Below, piece after piece: positions 18,864-28,251 of a stretch of 34,921 bases of DNA. The notes beneath the pieces are model-generated. The model was not told the DNA's origin. It ran no database searches and saw only the letters and a program-made list of their open reading frames with translations. Source of the DNA: Pseudomonadota bacterium (lineage in GTDB: Bacteria > Myxococcota_A > UBA9160 > PR03). Each line of letters begins with the position of its first letter. Position 1 is the stretch's first letter. The stretch is from the NCBI GenBank assembly GCA_003576805.1, contig QEVM01000088.1, positions 1 through 34,921 on the forward strand, written 5' to 3'. The translations under genes and the position numbers were made by a program.

Positions 18864-18942
18864 GCCCGCACCCGGAGGCGCGGCGAAGTGGCCCGCGCCG
18901 CACGGCGGCGATTGGTTCTTTCCGCGCGGCGTGCGGCCTCCG

Positions 18943-18948
18943 TACCCT
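18943..18948 (+). promoter_or_regulatory. Candidate -10 box for a leaderless molybdopterin oxidoreductase transcript
   Basis: TACCCT ends 6 nt before the ATG at 18955. No ribosome site lies between. The A/T-richer stretch near 18911-18922 may supply a -35. Confidence 0.45.
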
Positions 18949-18954
18949 GTGCGC

Positions 18955-21183
18955 ATGACGCGAAGAACCGTCTACGGCACGTGCAGCTTCTGCGAGGCGA
19001 CCTGCGGGATCGAGGTGCAGCTCGAGGGGCGCGACGTCGTGCGCCTGCGCGGCGACGACGCGGACGTCTTCTCGCGCGGCCACGTGTGCCCGAAGGCGGT
19101 CGGCATGCGCGACCTGCACGCCGACCCGGACCGCCTGCGCCGGCCGCTGCGCCGCACCGCGCGCGGCGACTTCGAGGAGATCGGCTGGGAGGAGGCCTGG
19201 GACTTCGCGGCGGAGCGCATCGCGCGCGTGCGCGAGGCGGGCGGCGCGAACGCCGTCGCCCTCTACCGCGGCAATCCGGGCATCCACGACTACGCGACGA
19301 TCCTCGGCGCCAACGTGCTGGTGCGCGCGCTCGGCACGAAGAACGTCTACTCGGCGGGCGCGCTCGACACCTGGCCGCGCTGGGTGCAGGCGGGCAGCAT
19401 GTACGGCGGTCCGCTGCGCTGCCCCGTGCCGGACATCGAGCGCACCGACTGGTTCCTGATGGTCGGCGCCAACCCGATGGTGTCGAACGGCAGCCTGATG
19501 ACGGTGCCCGACTTCCGCGGCCGGCTCGCCGCGCTGCAGGCGCGCGGCGGCAAGCTGATCGTCGTCGATCCGCGCCGCAGCGAGACGGCGGAGCGCGCCG
19601 ACGAGCACCACTTCGTCGTGCCCGGCACGGACGCCGCCTTCCTGCTCGCGATGCTGCACGTGCTCTTCGCCGAAGGGCGCGTCGCGCTCGGCGCGTGCGA
19701 GGGGCTGGTGAACGGCGTCGGCGAGGTCGAGCGCATCGCGGCGCGCTTCGCGCCCGAGCGCGTCGCCGCGCGCTGCGGCATCGACGCCGCGACGATCCGC
19801 CGCCTCGCGCGCGAGATGGCGGAGGCGCCGAGCGCGGTCGCCTACGGACGCATGGGCACGTCGACGCAGGCGTTCGGCACGCTCGCGACGTGGGCGCTCG
19901 ATCTGCTCTGCATCCTCACCGGCAACCTCGACCGGCCCGGCGGCGCGATGTTCGCGCGGCCCGCGGCGCCGCTGCACTTCGCGTTCGAGCCGAACGGCGC
20001 GGTGCAGTTCGGCCGCTGGCGGAGCCGCGCCGGCGGCCGCCACGAGATCGTCGGCGAGCTGCCCGTGATGGCGCTCGCCGAGGAGATCGAGACGCCCGGC
20101 GATGGCCAGGTGCGCGCGCTCGTCACGGTCGCGGGCAATCCGGTGCGCACGGCGCCCAACAGCGCGCGCATCGAGCGTGCGATCGCGTCGCTCGACTTCG
20201 TCGTCTGCCTTGACTGGTACCGCAACGAGACGACGCGCCACGCGCACCTGATCCTGCCGCCGCCGGGGCCCTTCGAGCGCAGCCACTACGACCTCGGCCT
20301 CGCGCACTTCGGCGTGCGCAACTTCGCCAAGTACGCGCCCGCGGCGCTCGATCCCGAGCCGGGCGCGCGCAGCGCGTGGACCACCGCGCTCGAGCTGGCG
20401 CGCCGCTGGATGGGGCTCGCGTCGCTCGCGGCGGAGCAGGTGGACGGACTCGTGCTGCGCCAGTTCGCGACGCTCGCGCTCGCGGCGAGCCCGTGGCAGG
20501 GCGACGTCACGGTCGACGAGCTGGTCCATGCAACCGGCAAGGAGCCCGGCCCCGACCGCATCCTCGACGCGCTGATCCGCGTCGGCCCGTACGGCGACGC
20601 GTGCGGGCGTCGGCCCGAAGGCCTGACGCTCGCCCGCATCCAGCAGCACCCGCACGGCCTCGACCTCGGTCCGCTCGTGCCGATGCTGCCGGGCCACGTG
20701 CGCACCGCGAGCGGCCGGATCGAGCTCGCGCCCGAGCGCATCGTCGCGGACGTGCCGCGCCTCGAGGCGTGGCTCGCGCGCGAGGAGGCGCCCTCGCTGC
20801 GTCTCGTCAACCGCCGCGACCTGCGCTCGATGAACTCGTGGCTGCACAACCTGCCGTCGCTCGCGAAGGGGCGCGAGCGCTGCACGCTCCAGATGCACCC
20901 CGACGACGCACGCGCGTGCGGCCTCGCCGACGGCGCGATCGCGCTGGTTCGCTCGCGCGTCGGCGAGCTGCGCGCGCCGGTCGAGATCACCCGCGACGTG
21001 ATGCGCGGCGTCGTGTCGCTGCCGCACGGCTTCGGCCACGACGGCGACGGCATCGGGCTGGCCGTCGCGGCGCGCAAGCCCGGCGCGAACGTCAACGCCG
21101 TCACCGACGACGCGCCCGCCGACGGCCCGAGCGGCGCGGCGGTGCTGTTCGGCGGTGCGGTGGAGGTCGTCGCGGCGGGCTGA
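18955..21183 (+). CDS. Molybdopterin (bis-MGD) oxidoreductase with N-terminal [4Fe-4S] cluster
   Basis: The 742-residue protein belongs to the DMSO-reductase superfamily. The N-terminal cluster ligands are Cys10, Cys13, Cys17 and Cys45 (TCSFCEATCG and HVCPKAVG). Cofactor-binding stretches include DWFLMVGANPMVSNGSLM and KLIVVDPRRSETAERADEHH. A C-terminal domain with SWLHNLPSLAKGRERCTL and LPHGFGHDGDG closes the active site. The Mo-ligand region reads YSAGALDTWPRW, without Cys or selenocysteine at the expected place; Asp may be the ligand. There is no Tat signal, so it is probably cytosolic. Partner subunits are absent, so the electron donor or acceptor is unknown. Automated names such as formate dehydrogenase are not justified. 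It converges on the CoA-transferase gene 3 bp away. Confidence 0.88.
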   Translation: MTRRTVYGTCSFCEATCGIEVQLEGRDVVRLRGDDADVFSRGHVCPKAVGMRDLHADPDRLRRPLRRTARGDFEEIGWEEAWDFAAERIARVREAGGANAVALYRGNPGIHDYATILGANVLVRALGTKNVYSAGALDTWPRWVQAGSMYGGPLRCPVPDIERTDWFLMVGANPMVSNGSLMTVPDFRGRLAALQARGGKLIVVDPRRSETAERADEHHFVVPGTDAAFLLAMLHVLFAEGRVALGACEGLVNGVGEVERIAARFAPERVAARCGIDAATIRRLAREMAEAPSAVAYGRMGTSTQAFGTLATWALDLLCILTGNLDRPGGAMFARPAAPLHFAFEPNGAVQFGRWRSRAGGRHEIVGELPVMALAEEIETPGDGQVRALVTVAGNPVRTAPNSARIERAIASLDFVVCLDWYRNETTRHAHLILPPPGPFERSHYDLGLAHFGVRNFAKYAPAALDPEPGARSAWTTALELARRWMGLASLAAEQVDGLVLRQFATLALAASPWQGDVTVDELVHATGKEPGPDRILDALIRVGPYGDACGRRPEGLTLARIQQHPHGLDLGPLVPMLPGHVRTASGRIELAPERIVADVPRLEAWLAREEAPSLRLVNRRDLRSMNSWLHNLPSLAKGRERCTLQMHPDDARACGLADGAIALVRSRVGELRAPVEITRDVMRGVVSLPHGFGHDGDGIGLAVAARKPGANVNAVTDDAPADGPSGAAVLFGGAVEVVAAG

Positions 21184-21186
21184 CGC

Positions 21187-22377
21187 TCAGGCGCGCGGCG
21201 GGATCACGCCCGCTTCGGCGAGCGCCGCGAGCGCGGCGTCGTCGTAGCCGAGCTCGCGCAGCACCGCGTCGGTGTGCTCGCCGTGGAGCGGCGGCGGCGA
21301 CGCGGGCTCGCACGGCGTCGCGTCGAAGCGCGCGGCCGGGCGCGCCTGCCGCATCTTGCCCGCGACCGGGTGCTCGAGCTCGACGACCACGCCGTTGTGC
21401 CGCACCTGCGGATCGTCGAGCACGCTCGGGAGGTCGTTCACCGGCGCGGCCGGCACGTCCTCGGCGATCATGCGCGCGAGCAGCTCGCCGGTGCTCCACT
21501 TGCGGAACTCGTCGTAGAGGAGCTGGCCGAGCGCCTCGGCGTTCTTGCCGCGTTCCCACAGCGAGAAGCGCGGGTCGTCGCACAGCTCGGGCCGGCCGAG
21601 CGCGCGGAAGAGGCCGTGGAACTCGTCGTCGCTGGCGGCGAAGTAGACGAGGTGGCCGTCGGCGGTCTCGGTGAGGCGGTAGATCTCGTACAGCGTCGGG
21701 CCGGGCTGCACGTCCTCGCCGAGCATCGTGTGCGCCATCATGCCGTCGGGCCACAGGAACGCGAGCGCGACGTCGAGCATCGCGACGCGCACGTGCTGGC
21801 CGCCGGCGCCGCGCTCGCGCGCGAAGAGCGCCGCCGTGATCGCCTGCGCCGCGGTGTAGGCGCTCGCCTTGTCCACGACGACGTGGCGGATCAGGTCGGG
21901 GATCGGGACGTCCGGGTTCTTCTGGATCGCGACGTGCCCGGTGAGCGCCTGCAGGATCGGGTCGTAGACGCGCCGGTCCTTGTAGGGTCCGCTCTCGCCG
22001 TAGCCCGTGATCGACACGTACACGAGGTCGGGGCGCACTTTGCGCAGGTCGCGCTCGGCGATGCCGAGCCGTTCCACCGCGCCGGGCCGGAAGTTCTGCA
22101 CGAACACGTCGGCGCGCTCGACCAGCCGCAGCAGCACGTCGCGGCCGGCGGGCTCGCGCAGATCCACCACGACGCTGCGCTTGCCGCGGTTTCCGTTGGC
22201 GAAGAAGGCGCCCATCCCGCCGCGGCGGAAGGGCGAGAGGCGCAGCAGGTCGCCCACGCCGGGCGGCTCGACCTTGACGACGTCGGCGCCCTGGTCGGCG
22301 AGCATCATCGTGGCGAGCGGCCCGGCCAGGATGGCCGACACGTCGACGACGCGAACTCCGCTGAGCGGTCCGGGCAT
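21187..22377 (-). CDS. Class III CoA-transferase (CaiB/BaiF family)
   Basis: This 396-residue cytosolic enzyme moves CoA between carboxylic acids. It starts with the family signature GVRVVDVSAILAGPLATMML, followed by GADVVKVEPPGVGDLLR, NRGKRSVVVDLREPAGRD and VQNFRPGAVERLGI. Asp169 (HVVVDKASAY) aligns with the acyl-anhydride-forming aspartate of formyl-CoA transferase. A small-domain segment (ARMIAEDVPAAPVNDLPSVL) and PPLHGEHTD near the end are also typical. The substrate is unknown; family members act on formate/oxalate, carnitine, bile acids and branched acyl-CoAs. The ATG at 22377 follows GAGGAG. It is divergent from the TetR gene, and the palindrome between them could control both. Confidence 0.92.
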   Translation of the reverse strand: MPGPLSGVRVVDVSAILAGPLATMMLADQGADVVKVEPPGVGDLLRLSPFRRGGMGAFFANGNRGKRSVVVDLREPAGRDVLLRLVERADVFVQNFRPGAVERLGIAERDLRKVRPDLVYVSITGYGESGPYKDRRVYDPILQALTGHVAIQKNPDVPIPDLIRHVVVDKASAYTAAQAITAALFARERGAGGQHVRVAMLDVALAFLWPDGMMAHTMLGEDVQPGPTLYEIYRLTETADGHLVYFAASDDEFHGLFRALGRPELCDDPRFSLWERGKNAEALGQLLYDEFRKWSTGELLARMIAEDVPAAPVNDLPSVLDDPQVRHNGVVVELEHPVAGKMRQARPAARFDATPCEPASPPPLHGEHTDAVLRELGYDDAALAALAEAGVIPPRA

Positions 22378-22441: not shown

Positions 22442-22471
22442 TTGCACGGGCGGTGCAAACTCACGTAACGT
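22442..22471 (+). promoter_or_regulatory. TetR promoter with embedded palindromic operator
   Basis: TTGCAC (22442-22447) and GTGCAA (22453-22458) form a perfect inverted repeat with a 5-nt spacer, the size of a TetR-type operator. The left arm is also a good -35 box, 18 nt from TAACGT (22466-22471), which ends 6 nt before the GTG at 22478. A repressor bound here would block the -35 directly. The site also lies about 35 bp upstream of the divergent -10 box. Confidence 0.6.
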
Positions 22472-22477
22472 GCTCGC

Positions 22478-23125
22478 GTGTCCGCCGCCGCCCGCCGCAG
22501 CGCTGCGTCACGCGCCGACGCCATGGCAGGCATCGACGGCCGCCGGCGGCGCGCCTTCCGCACGCGCGCCGCGGTCGTCGAAGCGCTGCTCGACCTGCTC
22601 GAGGCCGGCGAGCTGCGGCCCCGCGCCGACCGCATCGCGGAGCGCGCGGGCGTCTCCACGCGCTCGCTGTTCCAACACTTCGCCGACCTCGAGGAGCTGC
22701 ACGCCGCGGTGGCGGACCGCCAGCTCGAGCGCATCGCCCTCGAGATCGGCCCGCCCGCGACGACGGGCTCGCTGGCGGCGCGCGTCGCGTCGCTGGCCGC
22801 CGCGCGCGCCGCGCTCTACGAACGCATCACGCCGGTGCGGCGCGCGGCGCTGCTCCACGAGCCGTTCTCGCGCGCGATCGCCGCACGCCTCGCCGGCATG
22901 CGGCGCTCGTGCCGGCGCGACGTCGACCGCATCTTCCCGGCCGAGCTGGAGCGGCTGCAGCCGGCCGCGCGCCGCGAGCTGCGCGACGCGCTGTGCATGG
23001 CGTCGAGCTTCAGCGCGTGGGAGCACCTACGCCGACACGCCGGCGCGTCGGCGGCGCACGCCGAGCGCGTCGTCGCGCGCTCGCTGCTCGCGCTGCTGAC
23101 CGCGGCGCGCCGGAAGGAGTCGTGA
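22478..23125 (+). CDS. TetR/AcrR family transcriptional regulator
   Basis: The 215-residue protein has an N-terminal helix-turn-helix (about residues 24-72) with RADRIAERAGVSTRSLFQHF, the typical TetR recognition segment, followed by a helical ligand and dimer domain with no conserved family signature. The GTG at 22478 is chosen because a promoter with its -10 six nt upstream leads directly into it; an internal ATG at 22523 is an alternative. The palindrome in its own promoter suggests autorepression, and perhaps control of the divergent CoA-transferase. The stop codon overlaps the next gene's ATG (TGATG), so the lipoprotein downstream shares its expression. The ligand is unknown. Confidence 0.88.
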   Translation: MSAAARRSAASRADAMAGIDGRRRRAFRTRAAVVEALLDLLEAGELRPRADRIAERAGVSTRSLFQHFADLEELHAAVADRQLERIALEIGPPATTGSLAARVASLAAARAALYERITPVRRAALLHEPFSRAIAARLAGMRRSCRRDVDRIFPAELERLQPAARRELRDALCMASSFSAWEHLRRHAGASAAHAERVVARSLLALLTAARRKES

Positions 23126-24147
23126 TGGCCCGCTCTTCGCTCGCGTGTCTGGTCGCGTGCGCGCTCGCGGCGAGCGGCTGCGAGCGCTTCGTCGAGCGAC
23201 AGGTCGAGAGCACGCTGCAGCGCGCGGACCAGAGCCTGCTCGAGTCGCCCGCGCTGCACGTCGTGCTGTGCGGCACCGGATCGCCGCTGCCCGACCCCGA
23301 TCGCGCGGCGGCGTGCACCGCGGTGATCGCGGGGGGGCACTTCTTCCTCGTGGACGCGGGGCCGGGCTCCTGGGAGCAGGTGGACCTCGCCAACCTCCCG
23401 ACCGGCGCGCTGCGCGGCGTCTTCCTCACGCACTTCCACTCCGACCACGTCGGCGATCTCGGCGAGGCGATCACGCAGAGCTGGATCGCGGGCCGCGCGC
23501 AGCCGCTCGACGTGTACGGTCCGCCCGGCGTGGCGCGCGTCGTCGCGGGCTTCGCCGAGGCGCTCGCGGCCGACGTCGAGGCGCGCGTCGCCCACCACGG
23601 CGACGCCTACATGCCGCGCGCGGCGGCCGGCGCGGTGGCGCGCGAGACCGCGCTCGGCGACGCGCCGAACGCGAGCGCCGTGGTGTTCGACCAGGACGGG
23701 CTGCGCGTCACGATGTTCGCGGTCGACCACGAGCCGGTGCGGCCGGCGGTCGGCTACCGCTTCGACTGGAAAGGCCGCTCGCTCGTCGTCTCGGGCGACA
23801 CGCGCAAGAGCGCGTCGGTGATCGAGCACGCGAAGGGCGCCGATCTGCTCGTGCACGAGGCGCTCGCCGCCAGCTTCACCGAGCGGGCGGTCGCCACCGC
23901 GAAGCGGATCGGCATGGAGCGGCTCGCGAAGCTCGCCGGCGACATCCCGAGCTATCACACGACGCCGCGCGAGGCCGGCGAGGTGGCGCAGGCGGCGGGC
24001 GTCGCGCACCTCGTGCTCTCGCACATGGTGCCGGCGCCCAGCAACTTCCTCGTGCGGCGCAGCTTCCAGAAGGACGCCGAGAGCGCCTTCTCCGGAGAGG
24101 TGACGCTCGGCGAGGACGGCATGCGCTTCCTGCTCGCGCCGGAGTAG
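23125..24147 (+). CDS. Metallo-beta-lactamase-fold hydrolase, predicted lipoprotein
   Basis: The 340-residue product starts with a lipoprotein signal peptide ending LAASGC, with Cys19 as the modified residue. The hydrolase domain begins near residue 45 (LHVVLCGTGSPLPDPDRAAA), like the RNase Z/arylsulfatase branch of the fold. Metal ligands are His103, His105, Asp107 and His108 (THFHSDHVGD), with an Asp in VVSGDT and a His in LVLSHMVP further on. Its location in the envelope rules out tRNA processing; a secreted esterase, phosphodiesterase or arylsulfatase role is more likely. It is translationally coupled to the TetR gene upstream, so its substrate or product may be related to the regulator's ligand. 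Confidence 0.87.
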   Translation: MARSSLACLVACALAASGCERFVERQVESTLQRADQSLLESPALHVVLCGTGSPLPDPDRAAACTAVIAGGHFFLVDAGPGSWEQVDLANLPTGALRGVFLTHFHSDHVGDLGEAITQSWIAGRAQPLDVYGPPGVARVVAGFAEALAADVEARVAHHGDAYMPRAAAGAVARETALGDAPNASAVVFDQDGLRVTMFAVDHEPVRPAVGYRFDWKGRSLVVSGDTRKSASVIEHAKGADLLVHEALAASFTERAVATAKRIGMERLAKLAGDIPSYHTTPREAGEVAQAAGVAHLVLSHMVPAPSNFLVRRSFQKDAESAFSGEVTLGEDGMRFLLAPE

Positions 24148-26583: not shown

Positions 26584-27441
26584 ATGGCGGAGCGGAGGAT
26601 CGAGCTGCGGTCCGTGGCGGGCGCGCTCGGCGCGGAGATCGTGGGCGTCGACGTCGCGGGCGCGCTGGACGACGCCGCGGTGCGCGACCTGCGGCGCGCG
26701 ATCGTCGATCACGGCGTCGTGATGCTGCGCGACCAGAAGCTCGATCGCGACGCGCAGCTCCGCTTCGCGCGGCGGCTCGGCGAGCCGGAAGTGCACCCGA
26801 TCGCCAACGGCATGGCCGAGCACCCGGAGATCATTCGCGTGCTCAAGCCCGCCGGCGAGCGCGCCTTCTTCGGCACCTCCTGGCACACCGACAACAGCTT
26901 CTTCGCGCAGCCCACCTCGTTCACGATCCTCTACGGCGAGGTCGTGCCGCCCGTCGGCGGCGACACCGTGTGGGCGTCGATGGAGAAGGCCTGGGCGACG
27001 CTCTCCGCGCCGATGCAGCGCTTCCTCGAGCCGCTCGACGCCGTGCACAGCGCGGCCAGCGCCTACGATCCGCGCACCACCGGCGACGCCAAGTACCGCG
27101 GCGAGGCGCCGATCACCTACACGTACTCCGACGCGATCTGGGACGAGGTCGTGCACCCGGTCGTGCGCAGGCACCCCGAGAGCGGCCGCCAGAGCCTGTA
27201 CGTGAACCCGATGTTCACGCAGCGCATCGCCGGCCTCGCCGCGCACGAGAGCGCCGCGCTGCTCGCGATGCTGCACGCGCACTGCCAGCGCCTCGAGTTC
27301 CAGTGCCGCTTCGCCTGGCAGCCCGGCTCGCTCGCGATCTGGGACAACCGCTCGGTGCAGCACTACGCGATCGACGACTACGAGGGCTTCGAGCGCGTGA
27401 TGTACCGCGTGACGTTGCAGGGAGACACGCCGGTCCGATGA
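26584..27441 (+). CDS. TauD/TfdA-family Fe(II)/2-oxoglutarate dioxygenase
   Basis: The 285-residue enzyme has the full TauD active site: His101 and Asp103 in WHTDNSF, distal His260 in VQHYAIDDYEGF, Thr128 in GGDTVWASM and Arg275 in MYRVTLQG for 2-oxoglutarate. The spacing between His260 and Arg275 (15 residues) equals that of E. coli TauD. It should hydroxylate an organic substrate in the cytosol, releasing succinate and CO2. TauD itself acts on taurine, but close relatives act on alkyl sulfates, phenoxyacetates or amino acids, and no sulfonate transporter is nearby, so the substrate stays open. A strong GAGGAGGAG site precedes the ATG. Its stop overlaps the ATG of the broken amidotransferase gene (ATGA). 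Confidence 0.92.
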   Translation: MAERRIELRSVAGALGAEIVGVDVAGALDDAAVRDLRRAIVDHGVVMLRDQKLDRDAQLRFARRLGEPEVHPIANGMAEHPEIIRVLKPAGERAFFGTSWHTDNSFFAQPTSFTILYGEVVPPVGGDTVWASMEKAWATLSAPMQRFLEPLDAVHSAASAYDPRTTGDAKYRGEAPITYTYSDAIWDEVVHPVVRRHPESGRQSLYVNPMFTQRIAGLAAHESAALLAMLHAHCQRLEFQCRFAWQPGSLAIWDNRSVQHYAIDDYEGFERVMYRVTLQGDTPVR

Positions 27442-28251
27442 CCGGTCTGCGCCTGCTGGTGCTGGACGCCTATGCGCCCGAGGGCCGCGCCGCCGTGCGC
27501 GGCGCGGGCGGCACCGAGGCGGGCCGGCTGTACGAGCGCATGCTGCGCGCGCTCGCGCCGGACGCCGCCGTCGAGATCGCGTATCCCGCCGATCCCGATC
27601 CGCGCCTTCCGAGCGGCGCGGCGCTCGCGGACTACGACGGCATCGCGTGGACCGGCTCGAGTCTCACGATCCACGCGGCCGGCGACGCGCGCGTCGAGCG
27701 GCAGATCGCGTTCGCGCGCGCCGTGTACGACGCGGGCGTGCCGAGCTTCGGAAGCTGCTGGGCGGCGCAGCTCTCGGTCGCCGCCGCGGGTGGGCGCTGT
27801 GAGGCGAACCCGAAGGGCCGCGAGTTCGGCGTCGCGCGCGGCATCGAGCTGACGGAGGCGGGCGCCGCGCACCCGATGTACCGCGGCAAGCCGCGGCGCT
27901 TCGACGCGTGGACCAGCCACGCGGACCACGTCGTCGCGCTGTGCGAGGGCGCGACGCTGCGGCGTCGCGCGCGGCCGCGGCCGCTTCTGGGCGCTCCAGT
28001 ACCACCCGGAGTACGACGCGCGCGAGGTCGCCGCGCTCGCGCGCCTGCGCAAGGACGAGCTCGTCGCGCAGCGCACGTTCGCGGACGACGCGGCCGCGTG
28101 CGACTGGATCGCGCGCCTCGAGACGCTCGCCGCGGATCCGTCGCGCGCCGATCTCGCGGCGTCGCTCGGCGTCGGCCCGGAGCTCCTCGACTTCGCGCAG
28201 CGCACGCTCGAGGTGCGCAACTGGCTCGCGAGCCTCGCGCCGCGGCGCTGA
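27438..28251 (+). pseudogene. Class I glutamine amidotransferase (GMP synthase-like), frameshifted
   Basis: The first frame (ATG 27438, overlapping the dioxygenase stop) gives a normal GATase start: LRLLVLDAYAPEG, DYDGIAWTGSSLTI and the nucleophile Cys107 in PSFGSCWAAQL, then WTSHADHVVALCEGATL ending near 27959. After that the frame turns into Arg/Pro-rich nonsense and stays open to about 28517. The homologous continuation is one frame over, from about 27961: GRFWALQYHPEYDAREVAAL with the catalytic His (28003-28005) and Glu (28009-28011), ending at TGA 28249-28251 after NWLASLAPRR. The join also seems short by some 10-15 residues, which favours a small deletion over a single-base error. As read, the protein lacks two of three catalytic residues. 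An intact form would hydrolyse glutamine or a gamma-glutamyl bond. Confidence 0.8.

What the first reader, a model, noticed from the sequence alone, without database searches (positions are those of the whole stretch)
22442..22480. TTGCAC-N5-GTGCAA operator that doubles as a -35 box
A perfect palindrome has its left arm serving as a good -35 element, 18 nt from TAACGT, directly ahead of a TetR gene that is coupled to a metallo-beta-lactamase-fold lipoprotein and divergent from a class III CoA-transferase. The layout suggests an autorepressed switch controlling an envelope hydrolase and a CoA-transferase. No such regulon is known to me.
Basis: partly seen in the sequence, partly recalled or inferred. 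Interest (0 to 1): 0.5.

Follow-up and report, generated by a model that had tools for sequence, protein, structure and literature searches.

The report
TetR operator overlapping its own promoter
A perfect DNA palindrome sits on the promoter of a TetR-type repressor gene in an uncultured relative of the myxobacteria, and the same palindrome recurs in front of related regulators' operons, so it is very probably the repressor's docking site: an ordinary kind of gene switch, but in an unstudied regulator group.

Summary
The palindrome TTGCAC-GGGCG-GTGCAA is at 22442-22458, as described, and is the only perfect copy in the 5.54-Mb genome. A 6-N5-6 palindrome alone is weak evidence: 4% of shuffles of this intergenic stretch contain one. 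Comparison makes it convincing. In a related TetR clade encoded downstream of a flavin monooxygenase gene, the same palindrome lies in front of that gene in 14 of the 14 loci with enough upstream sequence (12 perfect, 2 with one mismatch). Other clades carry different operators in the same 17-bp frame (TGTCAC or TGGCAY arms), and operator type goes with one recognition-helix residue, Arg or not. The promoter layout TTGCNN-18-YANNNT-6/7-start recurs in 7 of 9 members of one of the window's two nearest clades, which supports the -35 claim and suggests a leaderless mRNA. The metallo-beta-lactamase lipoprotein (arylsulfatase/RNase Z-like) is a recurrent TetR neighbour (12 of 54 genomes), in four with an operator between the two. 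Control of the CoA-transferase is not supported. Best reading: autorepressed TetR-hydrolase operon; a new member of a known kind. Nothing was tested in vitro.

The parts
22442..22458 (.). palindromic operator TTGCAC-GGGCG-GTGCAA
   Evidence: identical arms in front of 12 related operons, one mismatch in 2 more
22442..22447 (+). left arm, probable -35 element (TTGCNN)
   Evidence: TTGCNN-18-YANNNT-6/7-RTG in 7 of 9 TetR genes with helix VSERTIFQHF and in the window, 0 of the 80 other rows (pattern formed after seeing the sequences)
22466..22471 (+). probable -10 element TAACGT, 6 nt before the GTG
   Evidence: for coordinates
22478..23125 (+). TetR-like regulator; GTG start probably leaderless, in-frame ATG at 22523 is the alternative start; recognition helix VSTRSLFQHF at residues 59-68
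23125..24147 (+). MBL-fold lipoprotein (lipobox AASGC, HxHxDH motif); its ATG overlaps the TetR stop (TGATG)
   Evidence: lipobox and metal motif read by eye from the translation
21187..22377 (-). class III CoA-transferase, divergent; probably not part of the switch

Best explanation
The palindrome is the operator of the adjacent TetR-type repressor. A TetR dimer bound at 22442-22458 covers the -35 element and much of the -35/-10 spacer of the single promoter that drives a probably leaderless TetR-MBL mRNA. It thereby represses its own gene and the coupled surface hydrolase until an unknown small molecule releases it. Shown by sequence: the site, its recurrence before related operons, the linkage to the MBL gene. 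Inferred: binding, repression, ligand release and leaderless start.
For: Same palindrome 1861-2007 nt upstream of the TetR match, i.e. before the flavin monooxygenase gene, in 12 of 15 monooxygenase-linked TetRs, plus one-mismatch sites in 2; the 15th contig ends too early. In one search, 8 of the 43 same-order genomes sampled carry the perfect palindrome, and in 6 of those 8 it lies within 2 kb of a homologue of this TetR listed (in G034 that homologue is a partial match, E 3.8e-8). Related clades have operators in the same 17-bp frame: 9 of 9 non-identical VS[TK]RAVFRHF TetRs with TGTCAC arms (5 perfect, 3 with 1 and 1 with 2 mismatches), 6 of 6 non-identical VGVRTVFRHF TetRs with TGGCAY arms (5 perfect, 1 with 1 mismatch). 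The only other homologue listed for this genome has helix VGLRSVFRHF, not the TTGCAC type (one search scored 15 of 52 first-look candidates, and the genome is 92.8% complete). Promoter geometry shared with 7 of 9 genes of one of the two nearest clades. TetR stop and MBL start overlap.
Against: No binding data. No close orthologue with the same layout was found: the ten best matches outside the window are 41-46% identical, and the two other genomes of the genus (67% and 85% complete) each have one homologue, of another helix type. The VSERTIFQHF clade, one of the two nearest in the tree (the three-way grouping has SH-aLRT 83 only and is unresolved), has no common 17-bp operator although it too lacks the Arg. 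Both promoter hexamers match consensus at 3 of 6. TetR_N scores 23.1 bits, just under Pfam's cut-off of 24.
Confidence: 0.82

Rival explanations
1. The operator is a shared switch that represses both TetR-MBL and the divergent CoA-transferase.
For: Divergent layout with only 64 nt between operator and CoA-transferase start; divergent TetR-target layout with the operator between is seen with the MBL gene in G038, G077, G074 and G043.
Against: In G005, same family, the CoA-transferase (77% identical) and MBL (71%) genes are divergent with neither TetR nor palindrome, so their pairing does not depend on this switch. The operator lies about 35 nt beyond the only -10-like hexamer I could read for the CoA-transferase (TATGCT, 22407-22402, by eye). 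Outside the window and G005, the loci searched for the CoA-transferase (31 short loci; 20 longer loci) gave one match: 52% over 143 residues at a locus end in G028, 1.2 kb from a TetR of another helix type.
Confidence: 0.2
2. The palindrome is bound by some other regulator, and the TetR controls other sites.
For: Palindromes with short arms are used by many families (recalled); no binding data here.
Against: The same arms accompany a related TetR clade in 14 of 14 assessable loci (12 perfect, 2 with one mismatch); the genome has no other site with perfect arms.
Confidence: 0.08
3. Chance palindrome in a GC-rich intergenic stretch.
For: A 6-N5-6 palindrome of any sequence appears in 4% of shuffles, any 6-bp-arm palindrome in 27.5%.
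Against: This exact sequence appeared in 0 of 5000 shuffles and at 48 places in 235 phylum genomes (my count of the list), and it equals the operator of a related clade.
Confidence: 0.02

Closest known systems
TetR-family autorepressors in general (TetR, QacR, KstR as described in PMC4482099, passages read)
   Same: HTH regulators that typically bind palindromes and control neighbouring genes, divergent or co-transcribed.
   Different: Sequence relation to any named TetR member is remote; ligand and regulon are unknown.
FasR of Mycobacterium tuberculosis and Ms6564 of M. smegmatis
   Same: Best Foldseek matches of the predicted model (6o6o, 6o6n, 6o6p, 4jl3; E 1.5e-4 to 6.7e-4, query TM 0.45-0.55).
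   Different: 20-25% identity; NCBIfam FasR model far below its cut-off (22.4 against 330 bits); no evidence for acyl-CoA sensing or activation here.
Monooxygenase-linked TetR clade of the same order and class (no name known to me)
   Same: Identical operator arms, same spacer length, related helix (no Arg at 66; Ser at 63 in 14 of 15).
   Different: TetR lies downstream of the monooxygenase; 34-42% identity to the window TetR (13 proteins).
MBL-fold arylsulfatase 8gyg, PNGM-1, RNase Z (for the partner enzyme)
   Same: Closest solved relatives of the MBL protein by sequence (E 5.7e-31, 2.6e-26, 1.9e-11).
   Different: Window protein carries a lipobox; substrate unknown.

Membership tests
TetR family of repressors | N-terminal TetR-type HTH | tested here: met
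   TetR_N 23.1 bits, slightly below the curated 24, but the predicted fold has HTH helices at 50-57 and 61-67 and matches TetR-family structures; the profile of alignment A1 hits TetR-family PDB chains.
TetR family of repressors | All-helical ligand-binding domain | tested here: met
   Model all-helical, mean pLDDT 90.5, pTM 0.76; matches FasR and Ms6564 at moderate TM.
TetR family of repressors | Palindromic operator at own or neighbouring promoter | tested here: met
   as sequence; not as binding.
TetR family of repressors | Binds operator as dimer, released by ligand | not testable with these tools
   Needs gel shift, footprint and ligand screen.
FasR | Equivalog score | tested here: not met
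   22.4 bits against cut-off 330.
MBL-fold arylsulfatase / RNase Z-like hydrolases | MBL domain with HxHxDH metal motif | tested here: met
   PF12706 73.9 bits; HFHSDH read in the translation.
MBL-fold arylsulfatase | Sulfatase activity | not testable with these tools
   Closest solved relative is 8gyg, named an arylsulfatase by its depositors; function not shown for the window protein.
Ribonuclease Z | Equivalog score | tested here: not met
   178.1 bits against cut-off 363 for the best model; the lipobox argues against a tRNA enzyme.

The most novel reading that the evidence does not exclude
These regulators form one natural specificity series. All read a 17-bp frame T-x-x-CA(C/T)-N5-(G/A)TG-x-x-A, and the residue before the conserved HF of the recognition helix sets the second base: Arg goes with TG (TGTCAC, TGGCAY), Asn/Tyr/Gln with TT (TTGCAC). 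The window protein, with Gln, is a second, separately branching case of the TT class. The family would then be a ready-made set for learning a TetR recognition code, and its operators (at sulfatase, MBL hydrolase and monooxygenase promoters) would outline a regulon type in an uncultured Myxococcota order.
Probability: 0.5. Interest if true: 0.5.

Novelty: new member of a known kind. Interest (0 to 1): 0.36.

Why it matters
The switch itself is textbook. What it adds is a predicted operator, promoter and partner gene for a TetR group in a lineage whose named records here are metagenome-assembled genomes, and a natural set of clades that share one operator frame but differ in two bases and a few helix residues. 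That makes TetR DNA specificity testable by simple swaps. It also ties MBL-fold hydrolases, type I sulfatases and flavin monooxygenases to related regulators.

Tried and rejected
Close orthologues by a genome-contig scan with the TetR alone: none. A second scan, with alignment A2, returned 14 TetRs of the monooxygenase type (helices visible). No named close relative of the window TetR was found.

Other targets in the genome: three one-mismatch palindromes. In a crude listing of four ORFs per site, first 60 residues each, I recognised no TetR, MBL, sulfatase or monooxygenase, and one site (L214) lies inside a likely coding frame. Not counted as targets, but not excluded either.

An operator for the VSERTIFQHF clade: no 6-N5-6 palindrome in common; a DNA alignment was uninformative, partly because one row was given with the wrong stretch.

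The hit in G128 (L169) lies inside a long hairpin just after the TetR gene and looks like a terminator; I left it out of counts (seen; set aside by hand; it is still inside the 14 of 27, so the count without it is 13).

The first upstream survey read the minus-strand loci in the wrong orientation; corrected. Searches failed on a file path and were redone. The automatic gene picking is crude, and neighbour identities rest where these cover them.

The reversed-motif control gave zero hits and looked too clean; I replaced it with permuted-stem controls. There, with one mismatch allowed, TTGCAY stands at 16 of 27 non-Arg rows against a worst control of 9 of 27, TGTCAY at 12 of 60 Arg rows against 7 of 60, and TGGCAY at 27 of 60 against 20 and 18 of 60, so only perfect matches are relied on.

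Literature: TetR with Baeyer-Villiger monooxygenase, operator and palindrom- (0 papers); TTGCAC and GTGCAA with TetR family and inverted repeat (0); TetR with metallo-beta-lactamase, arylsulfatase and repressor (3, listing only, not on point by title); TetR, TTGCAC and operator (113 papers, the 15 listed seen by title and start of abstract; in PMC9342713 passages showed TTGCAC only inside a primer; the other 98 were not seen); Myxococcota terms (1, listing only); two broader searches. PMC13273656 passages were read; it concerns an IclR-type regulator. PMC4482099 passages were read.

Full report
What is there. The palindrome TTGCAC-GGGCG-GTGCAA lies at 22442-22458 and is perfect. Eighteen bases after its left arm comes TAACGT (22466-22471), and six bases later GTG (22478) opens a TetR-like gene. 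That gene's stop overlaps by one base the ATG (23125) of an MBL-fold lipoprotein. On the other strand a class III CoA-transferase (PF02515, 351.5 bits) starts at 22377. The perfect palindrome occurs once in the window and once in the 5.54-Mb genome; three one-mismatch copies occur elsewhere.

Is it more than chance? Taken alone, only moderately. In 5000 dinucleotide shuffles of the 100-nt intergenic stretch, 4.0% contained some perfect 6-N5-6 palindrome and 27.5% some 6-bp-arm palindrome with spacer 0-9; none contained this exact sequence. The hexamers match TTGACA and TATAAT at 3 of 6 positions each, and a consensus promoter scan found nothing. The case rests on comparison.

Related regulators. 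Of 191 genomes searched, 73 hold homologues of the TetR at E <= 1e-5; apart from the window itself the ten best are 41-46% identical. I fetched the surroundings of 79 hits (not all hits), added 10 loci and the window, and obtained 90 TetR rows, 87 of them non-identical; one fetched locus (L177) gave no row at the score threshold used.

The same palindrome elsewhere. The pattern TTGCAC-N5-GTGCAA was sought in 235 genomes drawn from the phylum. Thirty-nine genomes have it, at 48 places by my count of the list. Of the 43 same-order genomes in that set, 8 have it, and in 6 of those 8 (G000, G027, G030, G034, G052, G058) it lies within 2 kb of a homologue of the window TetR (coordinates; the G034 homologue is a partial match, E 3.8e-8). 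The two exceptions are G010 and G023. In the five other than the window the site is 1.8-2.0 kb from the TetR match; in the loci read closely it stands in front of a flavin-monooxygenase gene that precedes the TetR (PF00743 28.7 bits, PF07992 44.2 bits for the L134 protein). In that monooxygenase-linked clade (15 TetRs from 15 genomes, 14 of the same order and one of the same class; SH-aLRT 100), 12 have the perfect palindrome 1861-2007 nt upstream of the TetR match, 2 have it with one mismatch (L136, L182), and the 15th (L164) sits on a contig with only 1020 nt upstream. The monooxygenase frame itself was translated for 6 of the 15.

Sister operators in the same frame. TetRs with helix VS[TK]RAVFRHF (9 non-identical; an MBL or type I sulfatase-type gene was seen near 7 of them) have TGTCAC-N5-GTGACA within 53 nt of the match start in 9 of 9 (5 perfect, 3 with one mismatch, 1 with two). 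TetRs with VGVRTVFRHF (6 non-identical) have TGGCAY-N5-RTGCCA in 6 of 6 (5 perfect, 1 with one mismatch). Aligned without gaps, the three arms TTGCAC, TGTCAC and TGGCAY share the frame T-x-x-CA(C/T)-N5. Near the genome's own second homologue (contig C13, helix VGLRSVFRHF) two TGGCAY-type sites lie 2.1 and 4.1 kb upstream of the TetR match, near the start of a GST-like gene and near a divergent gene by the crude gene picking.

Helix and operator. Among non-identical rows that have a site within 4.6 kb (one mismatch allowed), the 15 with a non-Arg residue at position 66 (window numbering) have TT arms, and the 37 with Arg have TG arms, without exception; 35 rows (12 non-Arg, 23 Arg) have no site (the hairpin of L169 set aside). 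With perfect matches only: TTGCAY in 14 of 27 non-Arg rows (13 without the L169 hairpin) and 0 of 60 Arg rows; TGTCAY in 5 of 60 Arg and 0 of 27; TGGCAY in 9 of 60 Arg and 0 of 27. Permuted-stem controls (8 stems per motif) gave at most 3 rows with perfect matches. With one mismatch the worst controls reached 9 of 27 non-Arg rows against 16 for TTGCAY, 7 of 60 against 12 for TGTCAY, and 20 of 60 against 27 for TGGCAY, so the one-mismatch counts, above all for TGGCAY, are weak. The rows are related by descent: the operator type changes only twice on the tree, and there are only one or two independent pairs, so the correlation is not replicated independently beyond the window itself. The nine VSERTIFQHF rows lack the Arg and yet show no TT site.

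Promoter. The window's layout TTGCNN-18-YANNNT-6/7-RTG recurs in 7 of the 9 TetRs with helix VSERTIFQHF and in none of the other 80 rows; I formed this pattern after reading those sequences. The window TetR, that clade and the VS[TK]RAVFRHF clade group together at SH-aLRT 83, with the order among the three unresolved, so VSERTIFQHF is one of the two nearest clades, not a proven sister. It has no common 17-bp operator. The shared spacing supports a -35 at TTGCAC, a -10 at TAACGT and transcription starting at or near the GTG (leaderless). The alternative start is ATG at 22523, which would give an N-terminus like those of several homologues.

Partner genes. MBL homologues at E <= 1e-50 occur in 54 of 79 genomes of the order. 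In 12 of these 54, one lies within 2 kb of a homologue of the TetR (G000, G004, G013, G038, G043, G049, G064, G065, G072, G073, G074, G077; coordinates); in 8 the gap is under 200 nt. In G038, G043, G074 and G077 TetR and MBL are divergent with a TGTCAC- or TGGCAY-type operator between them (one mismatch in G074). In G049, G065 and G072 a sulfatase-type gene stands between TetR and MBL (PF00884 confirmed for G065 and G072). So the MBL gene is a plausible regulated partner. The nearest MBLs by sequence (G002 79%, G005 71%, G012 63%, G010 56%) have no TetR of this kind in the stretch fetched; G002's contig ends inside the MBL gene. In G005 the CoA-transferase and MBL genes are divergent with no TetR and no palindrome between them. 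Control of the CoA-transferase therefore has no comparative support.

The proteins. The TetR model (mean pLDDT 90.5) is all-helical with HTH helices 50-57 and 61-67, so residues 61-67 (TRSLFQH) form the recognition helix. Its best structural matches are FasR and Ms6564 at 20-25% identity. The MBL protein is closest among solved structures to the arylsulfatase 8gyg (E 5.7e-31), then PNGM-1 and RNase Z. Its lipobox and HxHxDH motif were read by eye.

Mechanism. Most likely the dimer bound to 22442-22458 blocks RNA polymerase at the TetR-MBL promoter, giving autorepression and a low level of the surface hydrolase until an unknown ligand relieves it. The site, its recurrence and the gene linkage are shown from sequence; binding, repression, leaderless start and ligand are inferred.

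Where it stands. The host is an uncultured lineage: loci of the related clade come from records titled as MAGs, most of them Myxococcota, Myxococcales or Deltaproteobacteria (12 of 14; two only 'bacterium'). My paper searches showed no description of this operator or regulator group in the open-access library, within what the listings show. A survey of mycobacterial TetR regulators (PMC4482099, passages read) says that TetR regulators typically bind palindromic motifs and that most are predicted to control an adjacent gene. The finding is thus a well-supported new member of a known kind.

Noticed in passing
window 22462-22472: A second small inverted repeat, CACGT-A-ACGTG, overlaps the -10 TAACGT (listed); I took its 5-bp arms for chance without testing.
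   Followed up: no
L120, L121, L122, L123, L127, L128, L131 (upstream of the TetR match): Conserved probable leaderless promoter TTGCNN-18-CANNNT-6/7-ATG before TetRs with helix VSERTIFQHF, which lack the palindrome.
   Followed up: partly
L086 (own genome, contig C13, 4000-16000): Paralogous TetR (VGLRSVFRHF) with two perfect TGGCAY-N5-RTGCCA sites 2.1 and 4.1 kb upstream of it.
   Followed up: partly
L087 (G069 contig C112, site at 27792-27810): A perfect TTGTCAC-N5-GTGACAA palindrome near a sulfatase-type gene (same crude protein cluster) with no homologue of the window TetR found in the 12-kb stretch: a possible target in trans.
   Followed up: no
L083 (G060 contig C23, 1028-1855): A DAPG hydrolase (PF18089) domain protein stands next to a TGTCAC-type TetR.
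   Followed up: no
window 18931-21183 and 26584-27441: Molybdopterin oxidoreductase and a TauD/TfdA-type dioxygenase on either side of the region.
   Followed up: no
L169, 650 nt after the TetR match start: TTGCAC-N5-GTGCAA inside a long hairpin right after the TetR gene, terminator-like by eye; a reminder that the motif alone is not an operator.
   Followed up: partly
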